This document shows, piece by piece, positions 499-24,043 of a stretch of 64,000 bases of DNA. The stretch lies in contig NZ_JACJTO010000006.1 in NCBI RefSeq assembly GCF_014698755.1, forward strand, positions 62,001 to 126,000, given 5' to 3'. This DNA is from Aphanizomenon flos-aquae FACHB-1287 (lineage in GTDB: Bacteria > Cyanobacteriota > Cyanobacteriia > Cyanobacteriales > Nostocaceae). The stretch's first letter is position 1. Each line of letters starts with the position of its first letter. Under the pieces are notes generated by a model. The model was not told where the DNA came from, searched no databases, and saw nothing but the letters and a program-made list of their open reading frames with translations. The position numbers and the translations under genes are program-made.

Positions 499-3246
499 TT
501 AACTGCTTTTTTTCGTTCTTTTCTTTTTCTCTGGTTTGAGTAAGGGAGCATTTAAGGCTTCATATTGACTAAATAAAAATTCGATTCGATTTAATTCACT
601 GACAAAGGGCTGGGGACGATAACATAAGTCTACGGCTTTATCTAATATTTGATGTGCCTTTACTAAGTCTGGTGGCATTGTCAAGGGATCATACAAATCA
701 GCTAAACTACTATCAGGATATTTGTCTCTGGTGTCTAACACTGCTTGCGCGGCTGTTTCTACTTTCTGTTTTTGTTTCTCATTGACGTTTTCAGGAAAGG
801 GATAGTTATTATAAACAATGGTATTGGAATAGCGATAATCACTTTTTAATCTTCCACATACATATTTTACCCATGTAATATGCATTTCTGAAGTGAGAAT
901 ACCAAATAAATAGAGAGTAGCGTTAGGTATAGTAATACAACTATCACTTGCAATTACACTACCCTCAAAAAATCCTATTGGGATATATTTTCGATTCTCA
1001 GATGAAACACGAGGAACAAGTAGATAATCAGTATCAGGTTGTCTATTTTCAGTAAACAATGTAGGAAAATCTGCCCATTTTACCGTTGATTGTTTTGTAC
1101 TTGATAATCTCATTTTTCTAACTTTACTGACTCTATCAGACAATAATGGCAATTTTTTTAATTCATGAGGTTGAATATCTTTCAGCCAAAAACACCAACG
1201 TTTTTTACCATTAAGAAATTCATCAGCAGAAATAAATGGTTTAATAAATTTTTCTCCAGATGGTTCTTGAATGACATATTCTACCTTTTCTTCCTCAGTC
1301 ATTAAAAGGTTTCCTCCATCTGTAGGTTGGCTACCTTTAAGCATTTCTGGTATATTACAAATAGGCTGATTTCTTTTTAAAATTATTAAATCGTTTCCTT
1401 CTGTTAAATACGGATTAATATTTTTAACTTTCCTCTCTGTTGGTTCACCCTTAATATTTACATAATCAAAAACTCTCTTATTTTCAATATCCTCTAAACC
1501 AAAACCAATAATTACACAATGTACAGCAGCATTACCTTTAGCTTCATTACTCCAGCTAAAAGTACGATGAGCAAAATGTATTTTTATTTTGTAATTATTG
1601 TAAAGTTCTTGCCAAATAATCCCAACTTGTTCACCTTGTGATATAGAATTTGTACTCACAAAAGCACAACGAATATTTGTATCTTGTATTAACTGAGCAG
1701 CTTTGATATACCAAGCACTTACATAATCTAAAACACCTGAATTTTTTATACTATTACAAACATATTGCATATCCGCTTTTTGTTCTGCATTTTGTAGCTG
1801 TTTACCAACAAATGGGGGATTTCCTAAGATAAAACTTAACTTTTCCTTCTCGATAACCGTTTCCCAATCAATTCTTAATGAATTACCATGAACAATTTTC
1901 GCAGATTTAGTTAAAGGAACTCTGAAAAAATATTGACCAAATTCATGACTAACCTGAATATTCATTTGATGATCAATTAACCACATTGCCACCTCCGCAA
2001 CACGCACCGCAAATTCATCATATTCAATACCCGCAAATTGATCTACATTAACCTTAATAATATCTTGAATGTTAATAAATTGCTGTCCATTTTTATTCAA
2101 TGCTTGCAAAATTTTAATCTCTAGATCTCGCAATTCCCGATAGGTGATAATTAGGAAATTACCACAACCACAAGCAGGATCAAGAAAATAAAGATTAGCG
2201 ATTTTTTGATGTAATTCTTGGAGTTTACCCCGATTACTTTTGACCTTTTCCAATTCTAAATATAAATCATCTAAAAATAGAGGTTTAATCAACTTTTGAA
2301 TATTTTTTTCTGAGGTATAATGAGCGCCTAAATTTCGTCTTTCTGTGGGATTCATGACCGCTTGAAACATCGAACCAAAAATAGCCGGTGAGATTTTACC
2401 CCAGTCAAAACCACAAGCTTCTAAAAACATTTCCCGCATTTTGCTATCAAAAGCAGCCGGTTGTAAAACCTCCTCAAATAACTTACCATTCACATAGGGA
2501 AACTGAGCCAAATTAGTATCTAAATTTGTTAATCTTTTTTCCGGTGGTGTATTTAATGTATGAAAAATAGAAGCAATGTGCATTGCTAAATCACTACCAT
2601 CTGATTTAGTATGTAAATCAATATATTCCCAAAAAATACCTTTATCAAAAATGCCTGTATCATCAGCAAATAAACAGAAGAGTAACCGGACTAAATAGAC
2701 TTCTAAATCATGACCTCGATAACCAACTGCTTCTAGTTTATCATGTAGTTTACCCATTAATTCAGCGGCTTGGATATTGACCGGATCTTCATCTTTATAG
2801 GTGCGTTTTTCATAACCAGCAATAAAACCGAATAAATGAACCTGATTAATAAAATCTTTGAGGACAAATTCTGTGGTAATATTAGTATCTAAATCGTAGA
2901 GTTTAAACTTTTGAAAATCAGAAACTAAAATATATTTTGGTAATTCATGTTCTTTTAAACCAGGGAAATAATCTTTGGCTTGCTGCATAGCTTTATCTAG
3001 ACTTTTCCCCCTAGATTTATGTTCTACTAAAATTACACCTTTCCAGAGTAAATCAATAAAACCTTGTTTATTATCGGCTTTTTTGACAGATTGTTCAAAT
3101 GTTGCCACCCTGCGACGAGAAATACCAAAAACATGAAAAAACCCATCCCAAAATGATTTAGCTTCTGCATCTTCTGAGGTTTCATGTTCCCATTCTTGAG
3201 AAAATGCGATCGCACGGCTTTTAATTTCGTTCCAGATTAATGGCAT
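499..3246 (-). CDS. MmeI-like type IIL restriction-modification enzyme (nuclease, methylase and target recognition in one chain)
   Basis: This 915-residue protein has the layout and length of MmeI-family enzymes, which cut and methylate DNA with one polypeptide. The N-terminal nuclease shows D65-x9-E75-H-K77, the exact spacing of the MmeI PD-(D/E)XK site. A helical spacer follows, then a gamma-class adenine methylase: GAHYTSEKNI near 307, SAM motif I FLDPACGCGNF at about 354-364, and catalytic motif IV GNPPF near 475-479. The remaining 430 residues should hold the target-recognition and C-terminal domains. No separate specificity or restriction gene is needed or present. The frame is intact and all catalytic motifs remain, so it is probably active. 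The recognition sequence cannot be read from the protein by eye. Confidence 0.92.
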   Translation of the reverse strand: MPLIWNEIKSRAIAFSQEWEHETSEDAEAKSFWDGFFHVFGISRRRVATFEQSVKKADNKQGFIDLLWKGVILVEHKSRGKSLDKAMQQAKDYFPGLKEHELPKYILVSDFQKFKLYDLDTNITTEFVLKDFINQVHLFGFIAGYEKRTYKDEDPVNIQAAELMGKLHDKLEAVGYRGHDLEVYLVRLLFCLFADDTGIFDKGIFWEYIDLHTKSDGSDLAMHIASIFHTLNTPPEKRLTNLDTNLAQFPYVNGKLFEEVLQPAAFDSKMREMFLEACGFDWGKISPAIFGSMFQAVMNPTERRNLGAHYTSEKNIQKLIKPLFLDDLYLELEKVKSNRGKLQELHQKIANLYFLDPACGCGNFLIITYRELRDLEIKILQALNKNGQQFINIQDIIKVNVDQFAGIEYDEFAVRVAEVAMWLIDHQMNIQVSHEFGQYFFRVPLTKSAKIVHGNSLRIDWETVIEKEKLSFILGNPPFVGKQLQNAEQKADMQYVCNSIKNSGVLDYVSAWYIKAAQLIQDTNIRCAFVSTNSISQGEQVGIIWQELYNNYKIKIHFAHRTFSWSNEAKGNAAVHCVIIGFGLEDIENKRVFDYVNIKGEPTERKVKNINPYLTEGNDLIILKRNQPICNIPEMLKGSQPTDGGNLLMTEEEKVEYVIQEPSGEKFIKPFISADEFLNGKKRWCFWLKDIQPHELKKLPLLSDRVSKVRKMRLSSTKQSTVKWADFPTLFTENRQPDTDYLLVPRVSSENRKYIPIGFFEGSVIASDSCITIPNATLYLFGILTSEMHITWVKYVCGRLKSDYRYSNTIVYNNYPFPENVNEKQKQKVETAAQAVLDTRDKYPDSSLADLYDPLTMPPDLVKAHQILDKAVDLCYRPQPFVSELNRIEFLFSQYEALNAPLLKPEKKKRTKKSS

Positions 3247-11100: not shown

Positions 11101-13843
11101 AGTTAAATTAAACAAAAAAGAGTTTAAAATTGGAGAAACTGCTACAGCTTTAATTCAATCTCCCTACCCAGAAGGAGAATTATATTTTGCAGTAATTAAA
11201 GATAAACCTCTCTATCAACAAGTAATCAAAATTAAAGGAGGTGCGCCCCAAATTCAATTTACAGTTACACCAGAAATGTTACCTAATGCAGCAGTAGAAG
11301 CAGTATTAGTCAGACAAGGTAAACCACTAAATCAAGTAGGACTAGAAAGATTAGAAAATTTAGCTAAAATTGGTTTTACAGCTTTTAAAGTTGACTTAGC
11401 AGATAAATATTTAAAGGTACAAGTTAACCCAGTTGAAAAATCTTTAGAACCTGGAAAGGAAGCTACAGTAGAATTAGAATTAAAAGATGATCAAGGAAAC
11501 CCCACTAAAGGACAATTTACTGTCATAGTGGTGAATGAAGCCGTATTACAATTAACTGGTTATCGTCCGCCAAATTTAGTAGATACTGTTTACGCAGAAC
11601 AACCAATTTCTACCCGATTTAGTGATAATCGTCGTGATGTTAAATTAGTCCCATTACTGACAAGTTTACCCAAGGGTTGGGGTTATGGTGGTGGCTTATC
11701 GAATGCGTTAGCAAATACTCGTATTCGTGAAGATTTTCAAGCTTTAGCTTATTACAATGGTTCGGTAATTAGTGATGAAAATGGTAAAGCCAAAATCACC
11801 TTTAAATTACCCGATAATTTAACAACTTGGCGGATAATGGTAGTGGCTACAGATGGAAATTTGCGGTTTGGGAATGGTGACGCAACATTTATAACTACAA
11901 AACCATTAATAACTAATGCTATTCTACCACAATTTGCCCGCACAGGCGATCGCATTTTGGCAGGTTTATCCGTCACCAACACCACCACCAACACCGGAAA
12001 TTTAAATATTAATGGTGAACTTAGCGGTTCTCTCAACTTCGCCGAAAATAATCCCAAAACCACGACATTACAGCCAAAAGCCGAGTCATTAACCCAAGCT
12101 TATCGTTTCCCAATCATAGCGGGTAATGTGGGCGAAGGTAAAGTTAAATTTACCACAGAATTAAATAATAATGTTGATGCTTTCACTGTCCCGTTGGAAA
12201 TTAAACCCTTAGAAATTACCGAACAAGTTGTAGAAACTAGTGTTAGTGAAAAACAGGTAAAAATTCCGGTGAATATTGCTAAAAATACCTTCCGCGAAGT
12301 TGGAGGTTTAGATATTCAATTAGCTAGTACCTTAATTCCCGCAATTAAAGCCCCTGCAAAACAAGTTTTAGAAAATAATGATTTACCATTTGCAGAAACA
12401 GCCGCCAGTCAATTATTAATTGCTGCAAATCTGCAAAATCTCACCCAAAAATATCATCAAACATTTGCCGAATTTAATCCTCAAGCACAAGCAAAAATAG
12501 CAATTAAGGAATTACAAAAATTGCAAATAGCAGATGGTGGTTTTGCAGCATTTCCAGGACAAGAAAAATCAGATCCTTGGGTTTCTAGTTATGCTGGAGA
12601 ATCTTTAGTTATAGCTAATCAAAGTTTTCCTGATTTAGTTGATAGTAAAATCATTTCTAGTCTCAAAACTTATTTACAAAATGTTCTTGCTAACCCTGGA
12701 CAATTCGACTTTTGTAAACAGAAACTTTGTAAATCTCAACTACAATTAAATTCTTTAATTACCTTAGCACAATTAGGAGATAAACGCAATAGTTTCTTAT
12801 CAGATATTTATCAAAAACGCAATGATTTTGATCTGGTTACTCAAATCAAATTAGCCAGATATCTATATCAATTTCCTGAATGGCAAAATCAAGCCCAAAT
12901 TATGCGGGTGGAGTTCCAAAAGAATATCTATGAAACTGGACGTACCGCAGTTCTAAACTTACCCAAAACTTGGAGTTGGATGAGTTCAAATACTGTCACC
13001 CAAGCCCAAGCTTTACGGTTATTTATTGACCAAAAAACCAACCCAGAAATTATTGATAAATTACTGCAAAGTCTTCTCAACTTACGCAGAGAAGGGACAT
13101 GGGAATCTAGTTATAATAACGCACAGGCATTCACAGCTTTAGTTGCATATAGCCAAAATCAACCCACACCTCCTAATTTTATGACTACGGTAAAATTAGC
13201 AAATCAGAAATTAGGAGAAACCCGTTTTAATGGCTATCAAAATCCTAGCTTACAAATAAATATTCCCATGAATCAATTACCTCAAGGTAAAAGTGATTTA
13301 TGGCTACAAAAATCTGGAACAGGTAAATTACATTATTTAGTAGCTTACAAATATCGTTTACAAGGAAATCAACCAGGGAGATTTAACGGTTTACGAGTAA
13401 CGCGAGAAATTAGTAAAGTTAATGAAGAGAAAACTATTCAAAAAACCGGAATGTATGCTTTTGATAAACCATTAACCTTACAACCTGGACAAGTATTTGA
13501 TATTGGTTTAGAAGTAATTACAGATCATCCTGTAGATCATGTAGTCATAAAAGACCCATTACCCGCAGGTTTTGAAGCAGTAGATGATAGTTTTCAAACA
13601 GCGACACCAGCATTACAAGCAAAAGCCGATAATTGGCAATTAGGATATAAAACAATCCATAAAGATCGGATTATTTCCTATGCAGATCATCTAGAACCAG
13701 GAGTTTACAGTTTCCATTATTTAGTTCGTTCCGTTACCCCAGGAACATTTATTTGGCCAGGTGCGGAAGTACATCTTCAATATGCACCAGAAGAGTTTGG
13801 ACGCAGTGCAGACTCTACTTTGGTGTTGGAGGAAAGAAAGTAA
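8135..13843 (+). CDS. Bacterial alpha-2-macroglobulin-like lipoprotein (YfhM-type)
   Basis: About 1902 residues from ATG 8135. The open frame extends back to 8003, but those 44 residues look like translated repeat. Starting at 8135 or 8138 gives a classical lipoprotein signal ending in FGMTNC, so the Cys would be lipidated. The body has serial beta-rich MG domains, a bait-like region, the A2M family segment LPDNLTTWRIMVVATD, a helical toroid (thioester-type) domain, and a C-terminal domain with DHVVIKDPLPAGFEAVDD typical of YfhM proteins. It should sit in the cell envelope as a protease trap beside PBP1C. The usual GC-x-EQ thioester is not visible: the matching site reads ENNDLPFAETAASQL (about 12369-12413), so covalent trapping is probably lost. 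Confidence 0.9.
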   Translation: MMIRKIFKFLVIFTLVFGMTNCHFIGIRSDNGKLPTVESLITPKLPDWIEQISPLGNAKPTSQIRIRFKQALIPVESLDSPQQQNLLTKFAIWPPLPGQFRFLTPRMVGFQADKAIPKATRVKVTLKAGLADLKNHRLNQDLAWTFNTESIQITNLSGVNPIEKVPVEPIDLQPKLQFTSNLELDLDSVQKHLQLIPEGKTQGVGFKVELAKEETPENLDPLEKFDPSSRNWVYNLTPGQNLKKATSYRLKFSRGLLPANGNLPSEKEFVSKLATYSPLKFVGIKPYGEPDSGGTYGRFIKGSPQLEFNNILLVDSVKDNIKINPVPKNIDSVLQISQEDRIVTINPYTLEPATTYTINIERNLKDKFGQTLGKPVTIKYDTGDIAGNISLPSDLNIFPTDKDLQINIDTINLPESKYQAAYRIVKPTDLVYTNSANDLLPQPSKWQYFKIRSQQNQSLNINVPLKEKLGNSQGMLAYGVQARTHKYEEDGKQLWKEPITYGIVQLTNLGVFSQWFPQSGLIRVHHLSDGLPVKAANIEVYQSKLSEKSRPQPLPCLTGKTDEKGVLIIDNNQLKQCYPQSDSSLPQLLVIASENQDWAFTRTEEYSGAYDYGIDAGWETNKPESRGVIFSDRKLYQPGEKAAFTAFADYLEKGKIQEDKNSVYQLILVNPNGQNTDLGTKKTNEFSTFSLELPISKNQPLGFYNIQAKGKNGKEISGEFRVAEFKPPNFKVDLQLNKKFAVIDDKIDVQVGSNYLFGSPVEGGEAKYFVTRQQSNFIPKGWEEFSFGRQWFWPEESPNVSNDVLQTNTKLDTNGKSSQTLTVTKDLPYPMTYRVDIEISDISNLSVANSQTFTALPSNRIIGLKSNFVADAGKDFPVEFIVTDPTGKILENQRVNLELQQMKYSSVTKIVEGSKTPQNQVEYKTVGKTYIISRNIPQTVNLKPTVSGSYRIRANFSDSKDDITATDLQIWVTGENQVFWGGEEKDKLEVKLNKKEFKIGETATALIQSPYPEGELYFAVIKDKPLYQQVIKIKGGAPQIQFTVTPEMLPNAAVEAVLVRQGKPLNQVGLERLENLAKIGFTAFKVDLADKYLKVQVNPVEKSLEPGKEATVELELKDDQGNPTKGQFTVIVVNEAVLQLTGYRPPNLVDTVYAEQPISTRFSDNRRDVKLVPLLTSLPKGWGYGGGLSNALANTRIREDFQALAYYNGSVISDENGKAKITFKLPDNLTTWRIMVVATDGNLRFGNGDATFITTKPLITNAILPQFARTGDRILAGLSVTNTTTNTGNLNINGELSGSLNFAENNPKTTTLQPKAESLTQAYRFPIIAGNVGEGKVKFTTELNNNVDAFTVPLEIKPLEITEQVVETSVSEKQVKIPVNIAKNTFREVGGLDIQLASTLIPAIKAPAKQVLENNDLPFAETAASQLLIAANLQNLTQKYHQTFAEFNPQAQAKIAIKELQKLQIADGGFAAFPGQEKSDPWVSSYAGESLVIANQSFPDLVDSKIISSLKTYLQNVLANPGQFDFCKQKLCKSQLQLNSLITLAQLGDKRNSFLSDIYQKRNDFDLVTQIKLARYLYQFPEWQNQAQIMRVEFQKNIYETGRTAVLNLPKTWSWMSSNTVTQAQALRLFIDQKTNPEIIDKLLQSLLNLRREGTWESSYNNAQAFTALVAYSQNQPTPPNFMTTVKLANQKLGETRFNGYQNPSLQINIPMNQLPQGKSDLWLQKSGTGKLHYLVAYKYRLQGNQPGRFNGLRVTREISKVNEEKTIQKTGMYAFDKPLTLQPGQVFDIGLEVITDHPVDHVVIKDPLPAGFEAVDDSFQTATPALQAKADNWQLGYKTIHKDRIISYADHLEPGVYSFHYLVRSVTPGTFIWPGAEVHLQYAPEEFGRSADSTLVLEERK

Positions 13844-13874
13844 TACTTTTATTCAAAATTCAAAATTCTTATAA

Positions 13875-14918
13875 CTATTTAGATAATGTACCAACATCAA
13901 CAAGACCTTTACACGCTGGGTATTTTAATGTGGAAATTACATTTTCATGGTCTGTCTCAGTTTTCAATTGCCATTTTCCAGAAGTTTCTGCAAGAATGGT
14001 AATTTCCCCTGCACATAATTGCTGTTTTGCTAAACCTGATTTTTTCATAGTTGAAATATCGCTTGCTGAGTGAACACAGGTTCGAGTAACTTCTGTACAA
14101 GCAAATTTGTTTAATCGCTTAGAATCATCATTTTGTAGATTTATCAATAAGTTAAACAATTCTGGAACAACATGACCATGTCCATTAGTGCTACCTACAG
14201 ATAAAACGGCTATTTCTGCATTAATAGTTTCCAATAATTGCTTCAAATCATCCCCATTCTTTGGATATGCTCCATGATGAGGAATTTTAACAACGTTAGA
14301 TGTAAGTTCATCTGGTTTACAAATATCTACACATTCTTTCAATCCTACATTTTCAATATCGGCAAGTAATATTGCAGCAAAATCACCATAAATGACCCGC
14401 AGAACCAGAGAAATTTCGTTAAGTTTGGTGTGAGAGTTTGCTAAATGCTTTTCAATAAATAATTGTCTTGGATGTAAAACGTGAATTTCTAAATTTCCCT
14501 GTGTATATGAGTTTGAATCACGTGAAGCTGGAATAAAGCGAATACGTCCCAGTCTATCCCAATCATCAAGACGATTTAAAGCCAATTCTAATCTGTCATA
14601 TTTAGGGCTTGTTCGTCTATAAGCTATTAATTTCTCAAATGAGATTTTATAAAAAGAGTGAGGAAGACAAAATGTTTCTACTTCTCCCTGTTTTAACCAA
14701 ATATCAAGAAACTCTACAAGCTTGACTAGCGGTGGAAGATGATCATCATGTGCATGAGTAATATAAATTCGCTTAATATTTTTTTTATTTTTATCTTGAA
14801 GCCATTTCTGTAACAAGCGTGGTTTCCCGATATCAACAACAACTGCTGAATCACTGTTATCACATATAACAATACAATCTGCATTACCTACAGGTAAAAA
14901 GGCAATTTCACAGGTCAT
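13875..14918 (-). CDS. ComEC-type metallo-beta-lactamase-fold hydrolase, partner of the upstream methylase
   Basis: This 347-residue protein begins with the ComEC/Rec2-like core: GNADCIVI then VVVDIG, and the metal site THAHDDH (54-60). ADIEN (about 186-190), IPHHGAYPK (212-220) and SVGSTNGHGHVVPE (240-253) follow, all landmarks of the soluble ComEC MBL domain, a candidate nuclease or phosphodiesterase. There is no membrane segment, so this is not a DNA-uptake channel. Its ATG overlaps the TGA of the methylase gene by 4 bases (ATGA), indicating translational coupling and a joint role. The last 90 residues have no domain I know. Substrate is unknown; DNA cleavage is inference from fold and partner. 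Confidence 0.8.
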   Translation of the reverse strand: MTCEIAFLPVGNADCIVICDNSDSAVVVDIGKPRLLQKWLQDKNKKNIKRIYITHAHDDHLPPLVKLVEFLDIWLKQGEVETFCLPHSFYKISFEKLIAYRRTSPKYDRLELALNRLDDWDRLGRIRFIPASRDSNSYTQGNLEIHVLHPRQLFIEKHLANSHTKLNEISLVLRVIYGDFAAILLADIENVGLKECVDICKPDELTSNVVKIPHHGAYPKNGDDLKQLLETINAEIAVLSVGSTNGHGHVVPELFNLLINLQNDDSKRLNKFACTEVTRTCVHSASDISTMKKSGLAKQQLCAGEITILAETSGKWQLKTETDHENVISTLKYPACKGLVDVGTLSK

Positions 14919-17680
14919 AAACGCTCCTCCATACTGTCTATTCTTAGCTTTTGTTTTAATTCTTCATTAGTTAGGTATGGATAAGGTGTATGGCGAAAAC
15001 GCCTAATTGCCCAAGGATGTGCTGAAAGTTGTTCAAATGTCTCTACATCTTCACTGAGTTCAGCTTCAAAAACTGTACCATCAAGCGCCCAACCAGGCAT
15101 TTCTGGAAGAATAGGAAGCCATGCTTCTTCATCATCATCTAACAAACCACTTAAATAAAGAAGAATTTGGCTATTATCTTGAGAAATCTCTAAAACTTGA
15201 CCAATCACAGTTAATGTCGGCTTTGTTTGTTCTGATTTCCATAATTCTAATTCTGGAGGTTCTCCAGTCCGTTTAATTTCTATCCAATGAGGATTTCCAT
15301 AAGATTCTTCTACAATTTCATTTAATTGAATTCGTAGATTATCTGGTTCAGGAATGTCAAGATGTTTTTGATCTCTCTCAATAATTTGACGGGTAATTTT
15401 AATTATTCGCGGATCTATTTTCTGAGGTAAGAGAAGTTTACATAACTCATCACTTGTTATTTCATGTGTTTTGCGTCCAATTAAAGATAGTGAATTGGCA
15501 ATTTTAGATGATAGAATACCCAACAACCATAATCTTTGATCTTCATAAGTTAGCTGATTCCATTCTTGTACAAATTTTTGATTATCAGGTAGTTGAGGAG
15601 ATTTTCCAGCTTGTTGTGCAGGAAGAACACAAAATATATTATTGTCAGGACAAAGACCTGTAGTATCTAATTGAGCAGCGAGAGGATATAACGAACCTCT
15701 ATTTACTTTACGACCAACAAAAATTTTTGGTAAATCAAAAAGTGGTTCGTATTTTAATCTGGCACTTGAAAGATATTCTCTTCCATATCTAATCCAGCGT
15801 TCATCTTCACTAACTTCTTTTGGATTTGCCCAAAGTCTATCTGTATCCCGCCACTTCATACGCCAGTTTCTCTTACATTGAGTATTTGGTGGACATTGAT
15901 TAAGCGGTTTATACTTTTTACTAGGAGTTACTCCATTAAAAACAAAAAACAGATCTCCTAATGCTATGGTGGGAACATTAATATTTATTGATGGGGTTGT
16001 CAGTGATTCCCAATTTTCAGAATCAGAATTTAACTGTGATATCCATGTTGCACCAAGGAAACCACCATCACGACATTCGGGAATACTAACTTGAGAAAAA
16101 ATTGCTTTTCCAGCTAGAGAAATTTTTATTTTTGGTTTACCTACACTTCCTAAAATTATACATACATCTTGTTTAGCATCAATACCAATATTCCCCGCCG
16201 GAAGTTGCCAAACTTCAAAAATTTGGCAATTATCAGTTAATAAACTACGTGCATTTGGGATGCCATGAGTTGTACTTGACAAAAAAGATTGAGGTAATAC
16301 AAAAGCAAATTGAGAATCTTTTTCTAGCCAGCTTAATGCTTTTTCTATAAATTTTGCAGCCCGTTGAGTATTACCATCCTCTGCAAAAGGAGGATTAGCA
16401 ATAATAACACGCGGCTTAATACCCATATTTCCTTTGTTTAAGTCATTATAATTTTCATGGGTAAAATGCTCAGGAAAAGGAAATGGAATACCTTGACCTA
16501 GTGATTCTCTTGCTAGGGTATATCGTAATTGTGTTACTAAATCCGCATATTGATCTAAATCATTACCCACTACATGATTCGCAAGATAAGATTTTCTTGC
16601 TTCTAAATTTTCAGGAATATCAGACATTCCTGCTAGACGTGATGTAGCAGCTAATAGCAAACTACCTGAACCAGCAGCCGGATCAAAAATTATTCGTTCT
16701 TCTGGACGTAACCTTTCTAAAGGTAATAATTCCAGCATTTTTTCAGCGATCGCTATTGGAGTATAATGTCGCTGTAAATCAGTCCATTGTTTACCTTCAA
16801 TCTCACTAGGTAATTCTTTAATAGCTCGTTCATACAGCAATCCCACATCTCGATGATCTACCAGTGCAAAACTAACTCGACTACCTAAGTTAGCTCCTAA
16901 ATGCTGTAATATTCCGTCGCTAAGATGAGGTATTGACTCCTCCAGTGCTTTTTTGAAAAAACCATTAGCACGAGGTACTGTAAGATTAAGTAAAACACGA
17001 GGATCATCGGTAGGAATCCGTGATTCAGAACCAAAAAAGCCTTTATCTTCTAAAATTCTTGCTGCTAAAAATGCGATCGCTACACGAATTCCATGACCTG
17101 CTATTTCGTTACGAGAAGATATTTTACTTTTTGAATTTCTCCTTTTAGGAATACCAATTTCTGTAAGCACCTCTTGAATTGCTGTTTGAAATGCTTGATC
17201 TAATTCGGCTCTTTGTCGCAGAAGAAAAGAAAAACTTCGTTCTGAAACAGATTCTTCAATATCTGCTAATGTTAGCTGACCAGTACGAAATTCTGCCAGT
17301 GCTTTTGGTTTAAATAAGTGGCTATCTTGTCTAGTTAGTTCTAAATATAGAGAGTCACGATCTATAATCCGTTCTTCTAACTTGCCAGATGGAGTGTAAT
17401 ATTGAAGTATATAAATTTCATCTGAGACTAACAACCCTGCGCGAATAGGCCAATAACGTAATTTCTGTTTCCATGCGTTTATTTCTGATTCATGAACAGA
17501 TTGAACCATGAAAGACAAGTTATTAGAATTTGGACGAAGACCATAATCTGTCCATAGAGCATCTACAGGTATGGGTTGCTCATTGCTCTGCGCTGACGGG
17601 ATACGCACACGACGGTGTGGTTCTATACCCCACACCCGATGAGCGATTTCAATTACATTATCCAGTCCCCGTACAGCCAT
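14915..17680 (-). CDS. N6-adenine DNA methyltransferase of a methylase-MBL operon
   Basis: A 921-residue protein with a gamma-type adenine methylase core: HYTPIAIAEKML (305-316), SAM motif I FDPAAGSGSLLLAA (332-345), catalytic IIANPPFAEDG (426-436) and FVLPQSFL. The N-terminal 290 residues are unfamiliar and show no D-x-ExK nuclease motif. The C-terminal 480 residues probably include target recognition and a beta-rich tail. Unlike type I or IIG systems there is no HsdR, HsdS or built-in nuclease. The only partner is the coupled MBL hydrolase. DNA modification is well supported by motifs; the role of the pair is inferred. Confidence 0.82.
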   Translation of the reverse strand: MAVRGLDNVIEIAHRVWGIEPHRRVRIPSAQSNEQPIPVDALWTDYGLRPNSNNLSFMVQSVHESEINAWKQKLRYWPIRAGLLVSDEIYILQYYTPSGKLEERIIDRDSLYLELTRQDSHLFKPKALAEFRTGQLTLADIEESVSERSFSFLLRQRAELDQAFQTAIQEVLTEIGIPKRRNSKSKISSRNEIAGHGIRVAIAFLAARILEDKGFFGSESRIPTDDPRVLLNLTVPRANGFFKKALEESIPHLSDGILQHLGANLGSRVSFALVDHRDVGLLYERAIKELPSEIEGKQWTDLQRHYTPIAIAEKMLELLPLERLRPEERIIFDPAAGSGSLLLAATSRLAGMSDIPENLEARKSYLANHVVGNDLDQYADLVTQLRYTLARESLGQGIPFPFPEHFTHENYNDLNKGNMGIKPRVIIANPPFAEDGNTQRAAKFIEKALSWLEKDSQFAFVLPQSFLSSTTHGIPNARSLLTDNCQIFEVWQLPAGNIGIDAKQDVCIILGSVGKPKIKISLAGKAIFSQVSIPECRDGGFLGATWISQLNSDSENWESLTTPSININVPTIALGDLFFVFNGVTPSKKYKPLNQCPPNTQCKRNWRMKWRDTDRLWANPKEVSEDERWIRYGREYLSSARLKYEPLFDLPKIFVGRKVNRGSLYPLAAQLDTTGLCPDNNIFCVLPAQQAGKSPQLPDNQKFVQEWNQLTYEDQRLWLLGILSSKIANSLSLIGRKTHEITSDELCKLLLPQKIDPRIIKITRQIIERDQKHLDIPEPDNLRIQLNEIVEESYGNPHWIEIKRTGEPPELELWKSEQTKPTLTVIGQVLEISQDNSQILLYLSGLLDDDEEAWLPILPEMPGWALDGTVFEAELSEDVETFEQLSAHPWAIRRFRHTPYPYLTNEELKQKLRIDSMEERL

Positions 17681-18012
17681 TTCAAAGTTATGTTTATTAA
17701 GTAAATTAAGTCAGGAATTATCTGATTGTCTTATTTGTAAGGAAAAACAACCTTTCGCTAGTATAATAGAATTTTTCAAAAAAAGCAATGCCTTTTGTGT
17801 TCATTTAGCATCTTGAAAAGAGTAAAGTTGCTAGTCTAAGTTATTAAGTATTACAGATGATAGCTGTGGTGATAAAGATTAGTAGTATAAATAATGAAAC
17901 AAGTCGTAAAAAATAAGAGATTAGCCAAAATTTTCCAATATTTTGACTATCCCTTCAGTCTAGCTATTTTATGAGATTTTATTCTCGTTTCTTTACCTAA
18001 TGAACAAAAACC
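17681..18012. other. Intergenic region before the methylase operon
   Basis: This 332-bp AT-rich stretch contains the predicted operon promoter and a leader of about 75 nt. Beyond that I see no gene, RNA or clear repeat. Confidence 0.4.
17760..17788 (-). promoter_or_regulatory. Predicted promoter of the methylase-MBL operon
   Basis: On the minus strand TTGCTT (17783-17788) and TATACT (17760-17765) are spaced by exactly 17 bp, a good housekeeping-sigma match. It lies about 80 bp upstream of the methylase ATG. Confidence 0.5.
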
Positions 18013-21975: not shown

Positions 21976-22707
21976 TTACAAAGTTTCTATACTATCCCAT
22001 ATATCTAACAATAATTTCAAGCTAGATAAATGATTCATTGATTCACATTGCTTTTTTAACGCGTCTAGATACTTTTTACCCTCTACAACCTTTGGATTTT
22101 TCTTGCTATAAAACAAACCAAACTGTCCGAGATATTCTTGTAGATAGTGTTTATGAAATCGCGCTTTTGTGCTAAAAGTACGTCCAGTTGGACAGCAGGA
22201 CATTTCTTCAGGATCATTGACTAAAACATCATAATATGCTTGAAAATCTGATAGAATTGTGGAACTTCTAAGTAAAGGATATTCGTTAGGAATTTCTGCA
22301 TTACCTAATGCCCAAGTTTCAAAACAGCAATGCTGAATTATTATGTGAATCTCTGTTTTTGAACTATCTATATTGTAGCCAGATTTGAGTTCATCAAGTT
22401 TAGATTTAAGTTCATGAAAACGAGCAGTATAAGAATGTTCTTCAGAGTCAATACATATAAAAAAATGGTTGACATTACCGAATTTTTCTATATCAATTAG
22501 ACAAGCTTCCAGTCGAGAAACTTCTGAATTGTTATTCTGTCTATCAACCATACTCGGATAGCCATTACCTGCAATAATTCGATAAGTATTCATTGTCATA
22601 TCTTCAGGTCTAACAACAAAAGTTAAGCTAGGAAATAAATGTTGTAACCATGCTTTATATACTTTTGGTTCAGTCTTGCCCCCCTCTACTAAAAATAAAA
22701 GATTCAC
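21976..22707 (-). CDS. TOPRIM-like protein of ATPase cassette 1
   Basis: This 243-residue protein opens with NLLFLVEGGKTEPKVY, a strand-loop with glutamate like RloB, DUF4276 and DUF4435 (AriB) proteins. A second acidic motif, FFICIDSEE (about 82-90), completes a TOPRIM-like E...DxE metal site. IIIQHCCFETWALGN is a further conserved block. It is coupled to the ATPase gene by a 4-base overlap (GTGA) and starts with GTG. A paralogue lies at 42079-42765 and shares AWLQ, GYPS, ETW-LGN, YYDV and NDPE motifs. By architecture it is the probable nuclease or toxic effector of a defence pair such as PARIS or OLD-type systems. That function is inferred. Confidence 0.75.
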   Translation of the reverse strand: MNLLFLVEGGKTEPKVYKAWLQHLFPSLTFVVRPEDMTMNTYRIIAGNGYPSMVDRQNNNSEVSRLEACLIDIEKFGNVNHFFICIDSEEHSYTARFHELKSKLDELKSGYNIDSSKTEIHIIIQHCCFETWALGNAEIPNEYPLLRSSTILSDFQAYYDVLVNDPEEMSCCPTGRTFSTKARFHKHYLQEYLGQFGLFYSKKNPKVVEGKKYLDALKKQCESMNHLSSLKLLLDIWDSIETL

Positions 22708-23849
22708 GCAGAAAATTCCTCACTATCAAGTAAATTAATTAATTGAGTAAACTTATCTAAGCTAGAAGCTGTATCAAGTGCTGGAATATCAGAAGCTTTT
22801 TTAACTCTGACTTTATTTCCAGATTTACTAACTATTTGCCAAGTTTTCCAAGGAATATTATTGATAATATATGGATGATGGCTAGTAAGTATAAACTGTA
22901 CATCTGGAGATTTATCAAGGAGAAAATCTGTTAGTTCAGCCATACAATTAATTCCTAAACTATTCTCAAATTCATCAATTAAAATTACTGATTCTTTAGG
23001 AGCGGAAATTACTTCAATTAAAAAAATTAAAGTACGAAACATACCAGATGAAATTCGCTGTTGAGGAATCCAGTCTTCTAAACCATTTTCTTGAATTTCA
23101 AAGAATAGCAGAAAATCACCATCTGAATCTCTTTTACTACTAACTCTCACATCTTTTAATTCTGGAAAAATATCAATATAATACTCTTTAATTTCATTGA
23201 AAAGATGTGGGAAAAATTTCTGCAAACAAAAAGCCTTCAGGACTGGTGGATCACCAGCAAAATATTCTTGGAAATCGTAAGCATTTAGTTTTATTTCATC
23301 TAATAACTCCATTTTTGCAGGATCATAACCAAGTCCAATCATCCATTTTTGACGAGTTTCAAAATTGAATATTAATTGCTTAAATGCTTGACGAACTGGA
23401 ATAATCAAATCTTCTTCTGACAGAAGAGTAATTGCACTTTCAGTTCTTTTCAATTTAGGCAATTTTTCGTTATTGAATTTTGAATCTAAGCCACTGCGGA
23501 GAAGTATCTCTATTTCAGAATCATCATCATATCGAACTAATTTTTCATAAACAATTTCAGTCTGTTCTGATTCATTTAGGTTTATAAATATTTCTTCATT
23601 TTTAATTGAGGAACTTTTTAACTCCCACCTATAATTTTGTCCTAAATGAGAGAAATTAATACTCCATTCCAAATCATCTAGGTTACGATTTCTACCTTTT
23701 GCAATATCACAAATTAAATTAAGTGCCTTTAAAATTCTTGTCTTTCCAACTCCAGAACCACCGACAAGTAAATTTAGATCCTCAAATTTAACTTCCTCAA
23801 TGTGCCAATTTTCTTTATTGTTACTAAATTTAAAACTCTGTATTTTCAT
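22704..23849 (-). CDS. SMC/ABC-like AAA ATPase of cassette 1
   Basis: About 381 residues from ATG 23849. The frame continues to a TTG at 23870, but the paralogue also begins at MKI, supporting the later start. It has Walker A GGSGVGKT (30-37), an ABC signature-like RISSGMFRT, Walker B VILIDEFENSLG and a switch histidine in TSHHPYIINN. This is the compact AAA_15/AAA_21 architecture seen in OLD, Septu, PARIS and retron-linked ATPases. There is no long coiled coil, so the head is nearly minimal. The 4-base overlap with the TOPRIM-like gene predicts a complex. Confidence 0.82.
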   Translation of the reverse strand: MKIQSFKFSNNKENWHIEEVKFEDLNLLVGGSGVGKTRILKALNLICDIAKGRNRNLDDLEWSINFSHLGQNYRWELKSSSIKNEEIFINLNESEQTEIVYEKLVRYDDDSEIEILLRSGLDSKFNNEKLPKLKRTESAITLLSEEDLIIPVRQAFKQLIFNFETRQKWMIGLGYDPAKMELLDEIKLNAYDFQEYFAGDPPVLKAFCLQKFFPHLFNEIKEYYIDIFPELKDVRVSSKRDSDGDFLLFFEIQENGLEDWIPQQRISSGMFRTLIFLIEVISAPKESVILIDEFENSLGINCMAELTDFLLDKSPDVQFILTSHHPYIINNIPWKTWQIVSKSGNKVRVKKASDIPALDTASSLDKFTQLINLLDSEEFSA

Positions 23850-24043
23850 ACTTCTTACTTTTCTTAACAAATAATTATATAGAGAATCTAAAAGAACTTT
23901 TTATATGAATATCTTTAATTCGCTCTATATCGGACATTTTAGCACTCAAAGTTATGATCAGAGATTTTATTTTAGATTACTTTTTAATATCATTAATTAA
24001 GCGTATATTCTCATCAATAATCTTTACAGCACTTCCCGGTCTT

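What the first reader, a model, noticed from the sequence alone, without database searches (positions are those of the whole stretch)
13875..17680. Adenine methylase coupled to a ComEC-type metallo-beta-lactamase
The methylase has complete SAM and NPPF motifs but no nuclease domain, helicase or specificity partner. The only linked gene, by an ATGA overlap and a good shared promoter, encodes a soluble ComEC-like MBL hydrolase with full metal site. ComEC MBL domains are thought to degrade DNA, so this could be a restriction-like system that uses an MBL fold as its nuclease. I do not know a named system with this exact pair.
Basis: partly seen in the sequence, partly recalled or inferred. Interest (0 to 1): 0.7.

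Follow-up and report, generated by a model that had tools for sequence, protein, structure and literature searches.

The report
Methylase paired with ComEC-like metallo-hydrolase
In some cyanobacteria a DNA-marking enzyme is encoded in one small movable unit with a soluble relative of the DNA-cutting domain of the DNA-uptake protein ComEC, which makes the pair a good candidate for an immune system that marks its own DNA and cuts foreign DNA with an unusual kind of enzyme.

Summary
In detail: a 921-aa adenine-type DNA methylase (14915-17680, -) overlaps by ATGA a 347-aa ComEC-like metallo-beta-lactamase (MBL; 13875-14918, -) with its metal ligands. The claimed promoter is not better than chance. 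I read 14 complete methylase copies, all in cyanobacteria (little else could be searched). Thirteen have a full-length MBL directly downstream (-4 to +17 nt); the 14th has an open methylase frame but an MBL cut in frame from 347 to 63 residues. I saw no full-length MBL of this clade without a complete methylase. In the window's genus the unit is a ~4.2-kb insert (four relatives show the empty site); other copies sit elsewhere, one on a plasmid, one beside Tn7-like genes. Eight of 14 carry a MerR-like gene. Close relatives differ by exchange of two segments, in two lineages: a probable target-recognition region (aa ~500-804), and a block spanning the gene junction (methylase aa 805-921 plus MBL aa 1-215). 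This fits a restriction-modification-like system in which a self-contained methylase marks host DNA and a docked MBL cuts unmarked DNA. Nuclease activity, methylated motif, docking and defence are untested. The libraries and papers searched name no such pair.

The parts
14915..17680 (-). DNA adenine-type methylase, 921 aa
   Evidence: ORF; Pfam N6_Mtase 8.3e-9; 13 loci aligned
16910..17680 (-). methylase N-terminal region aa 1-257, no family match; replaced by an unrelated stretch of about 110 aa in L107
   Evidence: PD-(D/E)XK resemblance not supported by profile comparison
16361..16909 (-). methylase catalytic core aa 258-440, motif I DPAAGSG (aa 333-339, 16664-16684) and motif IV ANPPF (aa 428-432, 16385-16399)
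15269..16183 (-). probable target-recognition region aa 500-804, exchanged as a block between close relatives
14918..15268 (-). methylase C-terminal region aa 805-921, varies together with the N-terminal half of the MBL
   Evidence: partial Mantel r 0.81; site patterns
13875..14918 (-). soluble ComEC-like metallo-beta-lactamase-fold hydrolase, 347 aa
   Evidence: ORF; ComEC profile and structure-sequence hits
14274..14918 (-). MBL N-terminal half aa 1-215, exchangeable, with HxHxDH (aa 55-60 at 14739-14756), N167, D187 and HH (aa 214-215)
13878..14273 (-). MBL C-terminal half aa 216-347, more conserved; H249; four invariant Cys (C274, C281, C302, C336) that may bind zinc (inference)
13822..18004 (.). 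approximate extent of the inserted unit, from alignment with the empty site in four same-genus genomes

Best explanation
A mobile, restriction-modification-like unit. The methylase recognises a short DNA sequence through its own target-recognition region (aa ~500-804) and methylates adenine in host DNA. The MBL has no recognisable sequence-specific part; it docks on the methylase through the methylase's C-terminal region (aa ~805-921) and hydrolyses DNA when the methylase meets an unmethylated site. In many copies a MerR-like protein controls expression, as controller proteins do in type II systems (recalled). Shown by computation: gene linkage, movable insert, exchange of two segments, purifying selection, and one case of MBL loss with the methylase frame kept. 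Inferred: DNA cleavage, docking, discrimination by methylation, role of the MerR-like protein, defence.
For: 13 of 14 complete methylases are followed within -4 to +17 nt by a full-length MBL. Same request, 386 phylum genomes each: complete copies of both in the same 5, none with one complete alone. L121 (G589): methylase frame open (915 aa), MBL cut in frame from 347 to 63 residues. In the decayed copies G261, G129 and G585 the methylase is in pieces and the MBL truncated or not found. Recognition-region exchange: window vs L024 dS 0.16 in about aa 1-440 but 1.03 in about aa 441-780; L028 vs L018 0.17 vs 1.32; L025 vs L031 0.54 vs 1.38; site-pattern shuffles 0 of 2000 in each of three triples. 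Methylase C-terminus and MBL N-half distances correlate after correction for the core (partial r 0.81, p 0.0005, 13 loci), recognition region and MBL N-half do not (-0.12). dN/dS 0.14-0.39 in 7 pairs by 5 segments. MBL closest to ComEC nuclease domains, E 4.3e-17, shown elsewhere to be Mn-dependent DNA nucleases (PMC8579336, passages; PMC12455585, abstract and passages). MBL-fold DNases exist in phage defence (PMC12799240, abstract and passages). MerR-like gene next to the methylase in 8 of 14 loci, and in 12 genomes searched only there, in 4.
Against: No activity of either protein is known. The Ser of the ComEC HHGS stretch, which I take to be S728 of 9ic4 (S728A lowers activity about 3-fold, PMC12455585), is Ala (A217) in all 13 loci, and motif II is HxHxDH, not HxDxDH, so metal and substrate may differ. 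The strong ComEC match covers aa 133-258; the motif II part aligns only weakly. Three distant relatives on plasmids (22-24% identity) sit beside replication, DUF3006 or metabolic genes, not methylases. Scanned neighbours at other loci are mostly housekeeping. No ATPase, unlike type I, ISP, BREX or DISARM (recalled). Co-variation across the gene junction may be mere physical linkage. One loss case is not a statistic.
Confidence: 0.55

Rival explanations
1. Guarded toxin or abortive defence. The MBL is an unspecific nuclease held inactive by the methylase; phage attack on the methylase or on host methylation releases it and the cell dies. The exchangeable junction block is the guard interface.
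For: Co-varying block across the gene junction; MBL nucleases of Hachiman, AVAST and canu are pro-enzymes activated by a partner protease (PMC12799240, abstract and passages); MBL lost while the methylase frame is kept in L121.
Against: No protease match in the methylase, MBL or MerR-like proteins scanned; exchange of the recognition region points to sequence-specific discrimination, which a pure guard would not need.
Confidence: 0.2
2. The methylase is an orphan-type epigenetic enzyme and the MBL a hydrolase of a nucleotide or other small molecule; the pair modulates gene expression or metabolism, not defence.
For: The MBL fold has many small-molecule substrates (recalled); ComEC HHGS Ser replaced by Ala; other contexts of distant MBLs.
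Against: Patchy presence, empty site, exchange segments and decay are unusual for a housekeeping regulator; best profile matches are ComEC and defence MBL models, all weak against the families' own cut-offs where given.
Confidence: 0.15
3. The N-terminal region is itself a nuclease of unrecognised type (type IIG-like enzyme) and the MBL is an accessory, for example clearing cut ends.
For: Length and order resemble type IIG enzymes such as the 915-aa MmeI-like protein at 499-3246; by eye aa 40-95 resemble its D...ExK strand, with Q60 and V62 where E and K stand.
Against: hhalign of the N-terminal regions: probability 2.6%, and on another stretch; the whole proteins align only in the methylase core, aa 330-434, 92.3%. 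The would-be E and K are Q and V in 12 of 12 aligned loci that have this region and the D is not constant. L107 lacks the region yet keeps methylase and MBL.
Confidence: 0.05

Closest known systems
Type II restriction-modification, including type IIG (MmeI)
   Same: methylase with its own probable recognition region; no ATPase match; patchy, movable, decaying; no full-length MBL of this clade seen without a complete methylase
   Different: the only candidate nuclease is a separate MBL-fold protein; second exchangeable segment across the gene junction; MerR-like gene; no family match to a type II nuclease
Trypsin-MBL nuclease modules of Hachiman, AVAST, Lamassu, DRT and canu
   Same: soluble ComEC-like MBL as candidate nuclease; weak matches to the PADLOC models LmuA, RTasMBL and Avs1a
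   Different: no protease found in the unit's proteins; the partner is a DNA methylase
ComEC nuclease domain (9ic4)
   Same: metal ligands and profile match, E 4.3e-17
   Different: no membrane or OB part; HxHxDH for HxDxDH; Ala for the HHGS Ser; C-terminal four-Cys stretch
6A-MBL (NF058523/NF058524)
   Same: MBL protein in a named anti-phage system; weak match 7.4e-6, 25.3 bits against a cut-off of 220
   Different: its partner model is named cap2_3, not a methylase
BREX PglX and MADS mad2 methylases
   Same: related adenine-type methylases; mad2 model E 2.2e-10
   Different: far below NCBIfam cut-offs (22.9 bits of 720; 11.9 of 500); no other BREX or MADS gene in the unit

Membership tests
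Type II restriction-modification | DNA methylase with motifs intact | tested here: met
Type II restriction-modification | linked gene for a recognised restriction nuclease | tested here: not met
   the linked gene is an MBL with no restriction nuclease match
Type II restriction-modification | same site methylated and cut | not testable with these tools
   needs long-read methylome and digestion
Type II restriction-modification | exchangeable sequence-recognition region | tested here: inconclusive
   block exchange at aa ~500-804 in two lineages is shown; that this region reads DNA sequence is inferred, no recognition-domain family matched
Type IIG (MmeI-like) | PD-(D/E)XK nuclease fused N-terminally | tested here: not met
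   no MmeI_N match; hhalign probability 2.6%; Q and V at the would-be E and K. Alignment shallow, so the fold is not excluded
[quoted passage not shown]
   no protease match in the window's methylase or that of L107; methylases of the other loci were aligned, not scanned
ComEC | competence membrane domain | tested here: not met
   347 aa, match to the MBL end of the model only; TIGR00361 33.3 bits of 190
ComEC-type MBL nuclease fold | metal ligands of motifs II-V | tested here: met
   motif II with His for one Asp
ComEC-type MBL nuclease fold | DNA hydrolysis | not testable with these tools
   bench assay needed
6A-MBL | over the NF058524 cut-off, with cap2/3 partner | tested here: not met
   25.3 of 220 bits; no match of the own genome to NF058523 over its cut-off
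BREX / MADS | methylase over family cut-off and the other core genes | tested here: not met
   for the cut-offs; the unit holds two genes; the rest of the genome was not searched for the other genes

The most novel reading that the evidence does not exclude
A restriction-modification class whose restriction enzyme is a ComEC-like MBL-fold nuclease without sequence specificity of its own, recruited by a self-sufficient methylase, and built from two independently exchangeable cassettes: one that sets the DNA sequence, and one across the gene junction that sets the methylase-nuclease interface, perhaps in an arms race with phage inhibitors.
Probability: 0.4. Interest if true: 0.82.

Novelty: new variant of a known kind. 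Interest (0 to 1): 0.62.

Why it matters
If true, it adds the MBL fold to the nuclease folds used for restriction (the known list, PD-(D/E)XK, HNH, GIY-YIG, PLD and half-pipe, is recalled, not from a call), links the MBL nucleases of other defence systems to restriction, and gives a small, apparently ATP-free pair simple enough to rebuild in E. coli. It also makes a question testable: why the nuclease half, and not only the DNA-reading half, is exchanged between close relatives.

Tried and rejected

Idea that the methylase N-terminus is a dead PD-(D/E)XK nuclease: suggested by eye against the MmeI-like neighbour, not supported by hhalign; kept only as a weak rival.

Idea that 6A-MBL is this pair: rejected, its partner model is cap2_3; the paper library holds no text with that name.

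Viral contigs: no relatives of either protein with alignment-derived patterns. Phage records: no methylase match, two distant MBL matches at 23-24% identity, neighbourhoods not read. Plasmids: one methylase match, the Pseudanabaena galeata plasmid; four MBL matches, that plasmid and three distant ones. Search outside cyanobacteria was limited: genome contigs allowed one scan, with the MBL as query (three loci), and the genome search was used within the window's phylum; so 'cyanobacteria' is a statement about what could be searched. The genome search scored only a few first-look candidates per genome, so misses are possible.

Literature: searches found nothing; some searches listed 1 of 1, 9 of 9, 15 of 18, 10 of 861 and 10 of 69 papers; none listed is about a methylase-MBL pair by title, start of abstract or the passages I read. 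Subscription journals are mostly not held, and bioRxiv is not held apart from preprint copies in PubMed Central. Papers opened: PMC12799240 (passages, abstract included), PMC12455585 (outline, abstract, passages), PMC8579336, PMC12458937 and PMC11090510 (passages); the rest only as search listings.

Rows dropped or merged: three rows of the MmeI set (L080, L081, L082) were left out as truncated or misread N-terminally; L077, L086 and L090 had no frame over 700 aa. G703 was taken as the locus of L018, because the coordinates coincide. L003/L031, L004/L023 and L005/G261:C416 were taken as the same loci because of equal contig lengths, and are counted once. L121 is not in the 13-row alignments. 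L107 has no residues at aa 1-257. The in-frame stops reported for some full-length hits lie past the gene ends in L026, L023, L024 and L121, where I read the frames. The three triples are not independent: two share L018 and L104.
Full report
What is there. Two genes on the minus strand, 14915-17680 (921 aa) and 13875-14918 (347 aa), overlap by ATGA. The first matches Pfam N6_Mtase (8.3e-9) between aa 303 and 469; no helicase family scores, and type IIG models match only in the methylase part. The second matches ComEC/Rec2 weakly (1.5e-8, 33.3 bits against a cut-off of 190), and the PADLOC models LmuA (4.8e-14), RTasMBL (6.3e-12) and Avs1a (1.5e-4). With a profile of nine loci the closest solved structures are ComEC nuclease domains (9ic4, 4.3e-17).

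Distribution. Methylase relatives occur in 9 of 291 genomes of the order, 9 of 386 of the phylum, 12 of 388 of the class (with a profile) and 2 of 13 further checked genomes of the genus; the samples overlap and the counts include fragments. One of 72,556 plasmid records has it, no phage record. Fourteen complete copies were read: window, L023, L024, L025, L026, L027, L028, L031, L018, L104, L105, L106, L107 and L121. Thirteen have a full-length MBL directly downstream: six with a 4-nt overlap, three with a 1-nt overlap, four spaced 8-17 nt. In L107 the first 257 residues of the methylase are replaced by an unrelated stretch of about 110. In the MBL search of 386 phylum genomes, matches at 50% identity or more lie in six: five beside a complete methylase, one (G261) truncated, near methylase pieces; a seventh, an 87-residue piece at 43%, is in G585, whose methylase is also in pieces. 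The remaining matches (22-38% identity) belong to another full-length MBL family in five genomes, described below, or to assorted longer or shorter frames that I read only in part.

Gain and loss. In the window's genus, four of nine loci that carry the 295-aa flanking gene (L112, L115, L118, L119) show the other flanking gene about 90-330 bp away, with no methylase match in those genomes; in the other five the second flank was not found within the 1.5 kb held. The unit in the window therefore spans about 13822-18004. L121 keeps an open methylase frame of 915 aa but its MBL is reduced in frame from 347 to 63 residues; neither of the window's flanking genes was found in the 12 kb held, so it seems to lie at another site. 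Copies in G261, G129 and G585 have the methylase in pieces, with the MBL truncated in two and not found in G129; G229 keeps only a 58-residue scrap of the methylase. No full-length MBL with a broken methylase was seen. This is the order expected if the MBL is harmful without the methylase, but it rests on one clean case. Other copies sit at different sites: near Exonuclease VII and PHP genes (L025), a photosystem gene (L027), cobW (L028), next to a type V-K-like TnsB with TniB and TniQ (L026), and on a plasmid (L018). Only part of the neighbours was scanned; they are mostly housekeeping or mobile-element genes. The window itself has a type IIG enzyme 11 kb away and a possible ATPase/RloB-like pair 4-6 kb away.

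A third gene. A MerR-like protein (PF13411, 22.7 bits in L031, just over its cut-off of 21.6; 20.3 in L027) lies next to the methylase in 8 of 14 loci: upstream in tandem in L018, L027, L028, L104, L105 and L106, divergent in L025 and L031. In 12 genomes searched with it, it occurs in four, once each, always at this locus. It is absent from the window's genome and those of L023, L024 and L026 and from the stretches held of L107 and L121. A controller role is inference.

Two exchanged segments. Close relatives are near-identical over most of the unit but differ wholesale in two blocks. Window and L024: dS 0.16 over about aa 1-440 of the methylase, 1.03 over about aa 441-780, and 1.49 in the MBL N-half. 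Window and L023: 0.10, 0.17 and 1.11. L023 and L024: 0.18, 0.95 and 0.19. So the two blocks move independently. In Pseudanabaena-type copies too both blocks are far apart (L028 vs L018: 0.17, 1.32, 1.08); dS values near and above 1 are close to saturation. In three triples, counts of site patterns by segment are far from uniform (chi2 451, 555 and 378; 0 of 2000 shuffles as large each); the shuffles ignore dependence between neighbouring sites, and two triples share two sequences. Over 13 loci, distances in methylase aa 805-921 correlate with those in MBL aa 1-215 after correction for the methylase core (partial r 0.81, p 0.0005, 2000 permutations), while the recognition region does not (-0.12, p 0.86), and MBL aa 1-215 hardly follows MBL aa 216-347 next to it (0.18, p 0.08). 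The segment limits were set after looking at the alignments. The first block looks like target-recognition exchange. The second suggests that the methylase C-terminus and the MBL N-half form an interface; linkage alone remains possible.

Active site. THxHxDH, N167, D187, H214/H215 and H249 are invariant in 13 MBLs; N167 to H249 align with ComEC, motif II only weakly. Two differences matter: motif II is HxHxDH where the ComEC protein of known structure has H-x-D-x-D-H, and the Ser of its HHGS stretch, which I take to be the putative DNA-binding S728, is Ala 217 here (PMC12455585, outline, abstract and passages). ComEC domains are Mn-dependent nucleases (PMC8579336, passages). Four invariant Cys (274, 281, 302, 336) are shared with another MBL family, found in five genomes beside GHKL-ATPase and response-regulator-like genes.

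How it probably works. The methylase marks host DNA at a motif read by aa ~500-804; the MBL, bound to the methylase C-terminus, cuts DNA where that motif is unmethylated. MBL-fold DNases already serve in phage defence, as pro-enzymes cut by a protease (PMC12799240, abstract and passages); here no protease was found, so control would come from the methylase. None of these activities has been shown.

Placing it. No library model names this pair, and the papers listed (the longest result lists seen only in part; two searches found none) do not describe it by title, start of abstract or passages read. It works like a type II restriction-modification system if the inference holds, but it fails one defining test, a recognised restriction nuclease, so I do not file it as a member.

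Limits. Both structure models were poor. Genomes beyond cyanobacteria could hardly be searched.

Noticed in passing
L059:6529-10281, L060:9420-13187, L061:9177-12914, L062:9271-13030, L063:6289-10038: Three-gene set in five cyanobacteria: a protein with two GHKL-type ATPase domains (HATPase_c_3 and HATPase_c; Pfam run on L059 and L063 only), a response-regulator-like protein without Pfam match, and an MBL with the same four Cys (23-26% identical to the window's). Possibly another MBL-effector immune system.
   Followed up: partly
window 499-3246 (-): Complete MmeI-like type IIG restriction enzyme-methylase, 915 aa, PADLOC 1270 bits, with a D...ExK stretch by eye; relatives in 19 of 41 genomes searched.
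   Followed up: partly
window 21976-23870 (-): AAA_21 ATPase gene followed by a weakly RloB-like gene (E 0.056, under cut-off); the same two genes appear, by their first residues, in L023 and L024. Possible two-gene defence system.
   Followed up: no
L026:3901-11582: The unit lies 0.7 kb from TnsB (V-K type model, 799 bits), TniB and TniQ genes, so it may be cargo of a Tn7-like or CRISPR-associated transposon; Cas12k and transposon ends were not looked for.
   Followed up: partly
L107:7764-8936 (-): 390-aa gene without significant family match about 10 nt upstream of the methylase whose N-terminus is replaced.
   Followed up: no
L018:19072-19779 (-): Prok-E2_D protein (8.6e-27) in the plasmid stretch just after the unit; I recall this family from PRTRC plasmid operons, so probably unrelated.
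   Followed up: no
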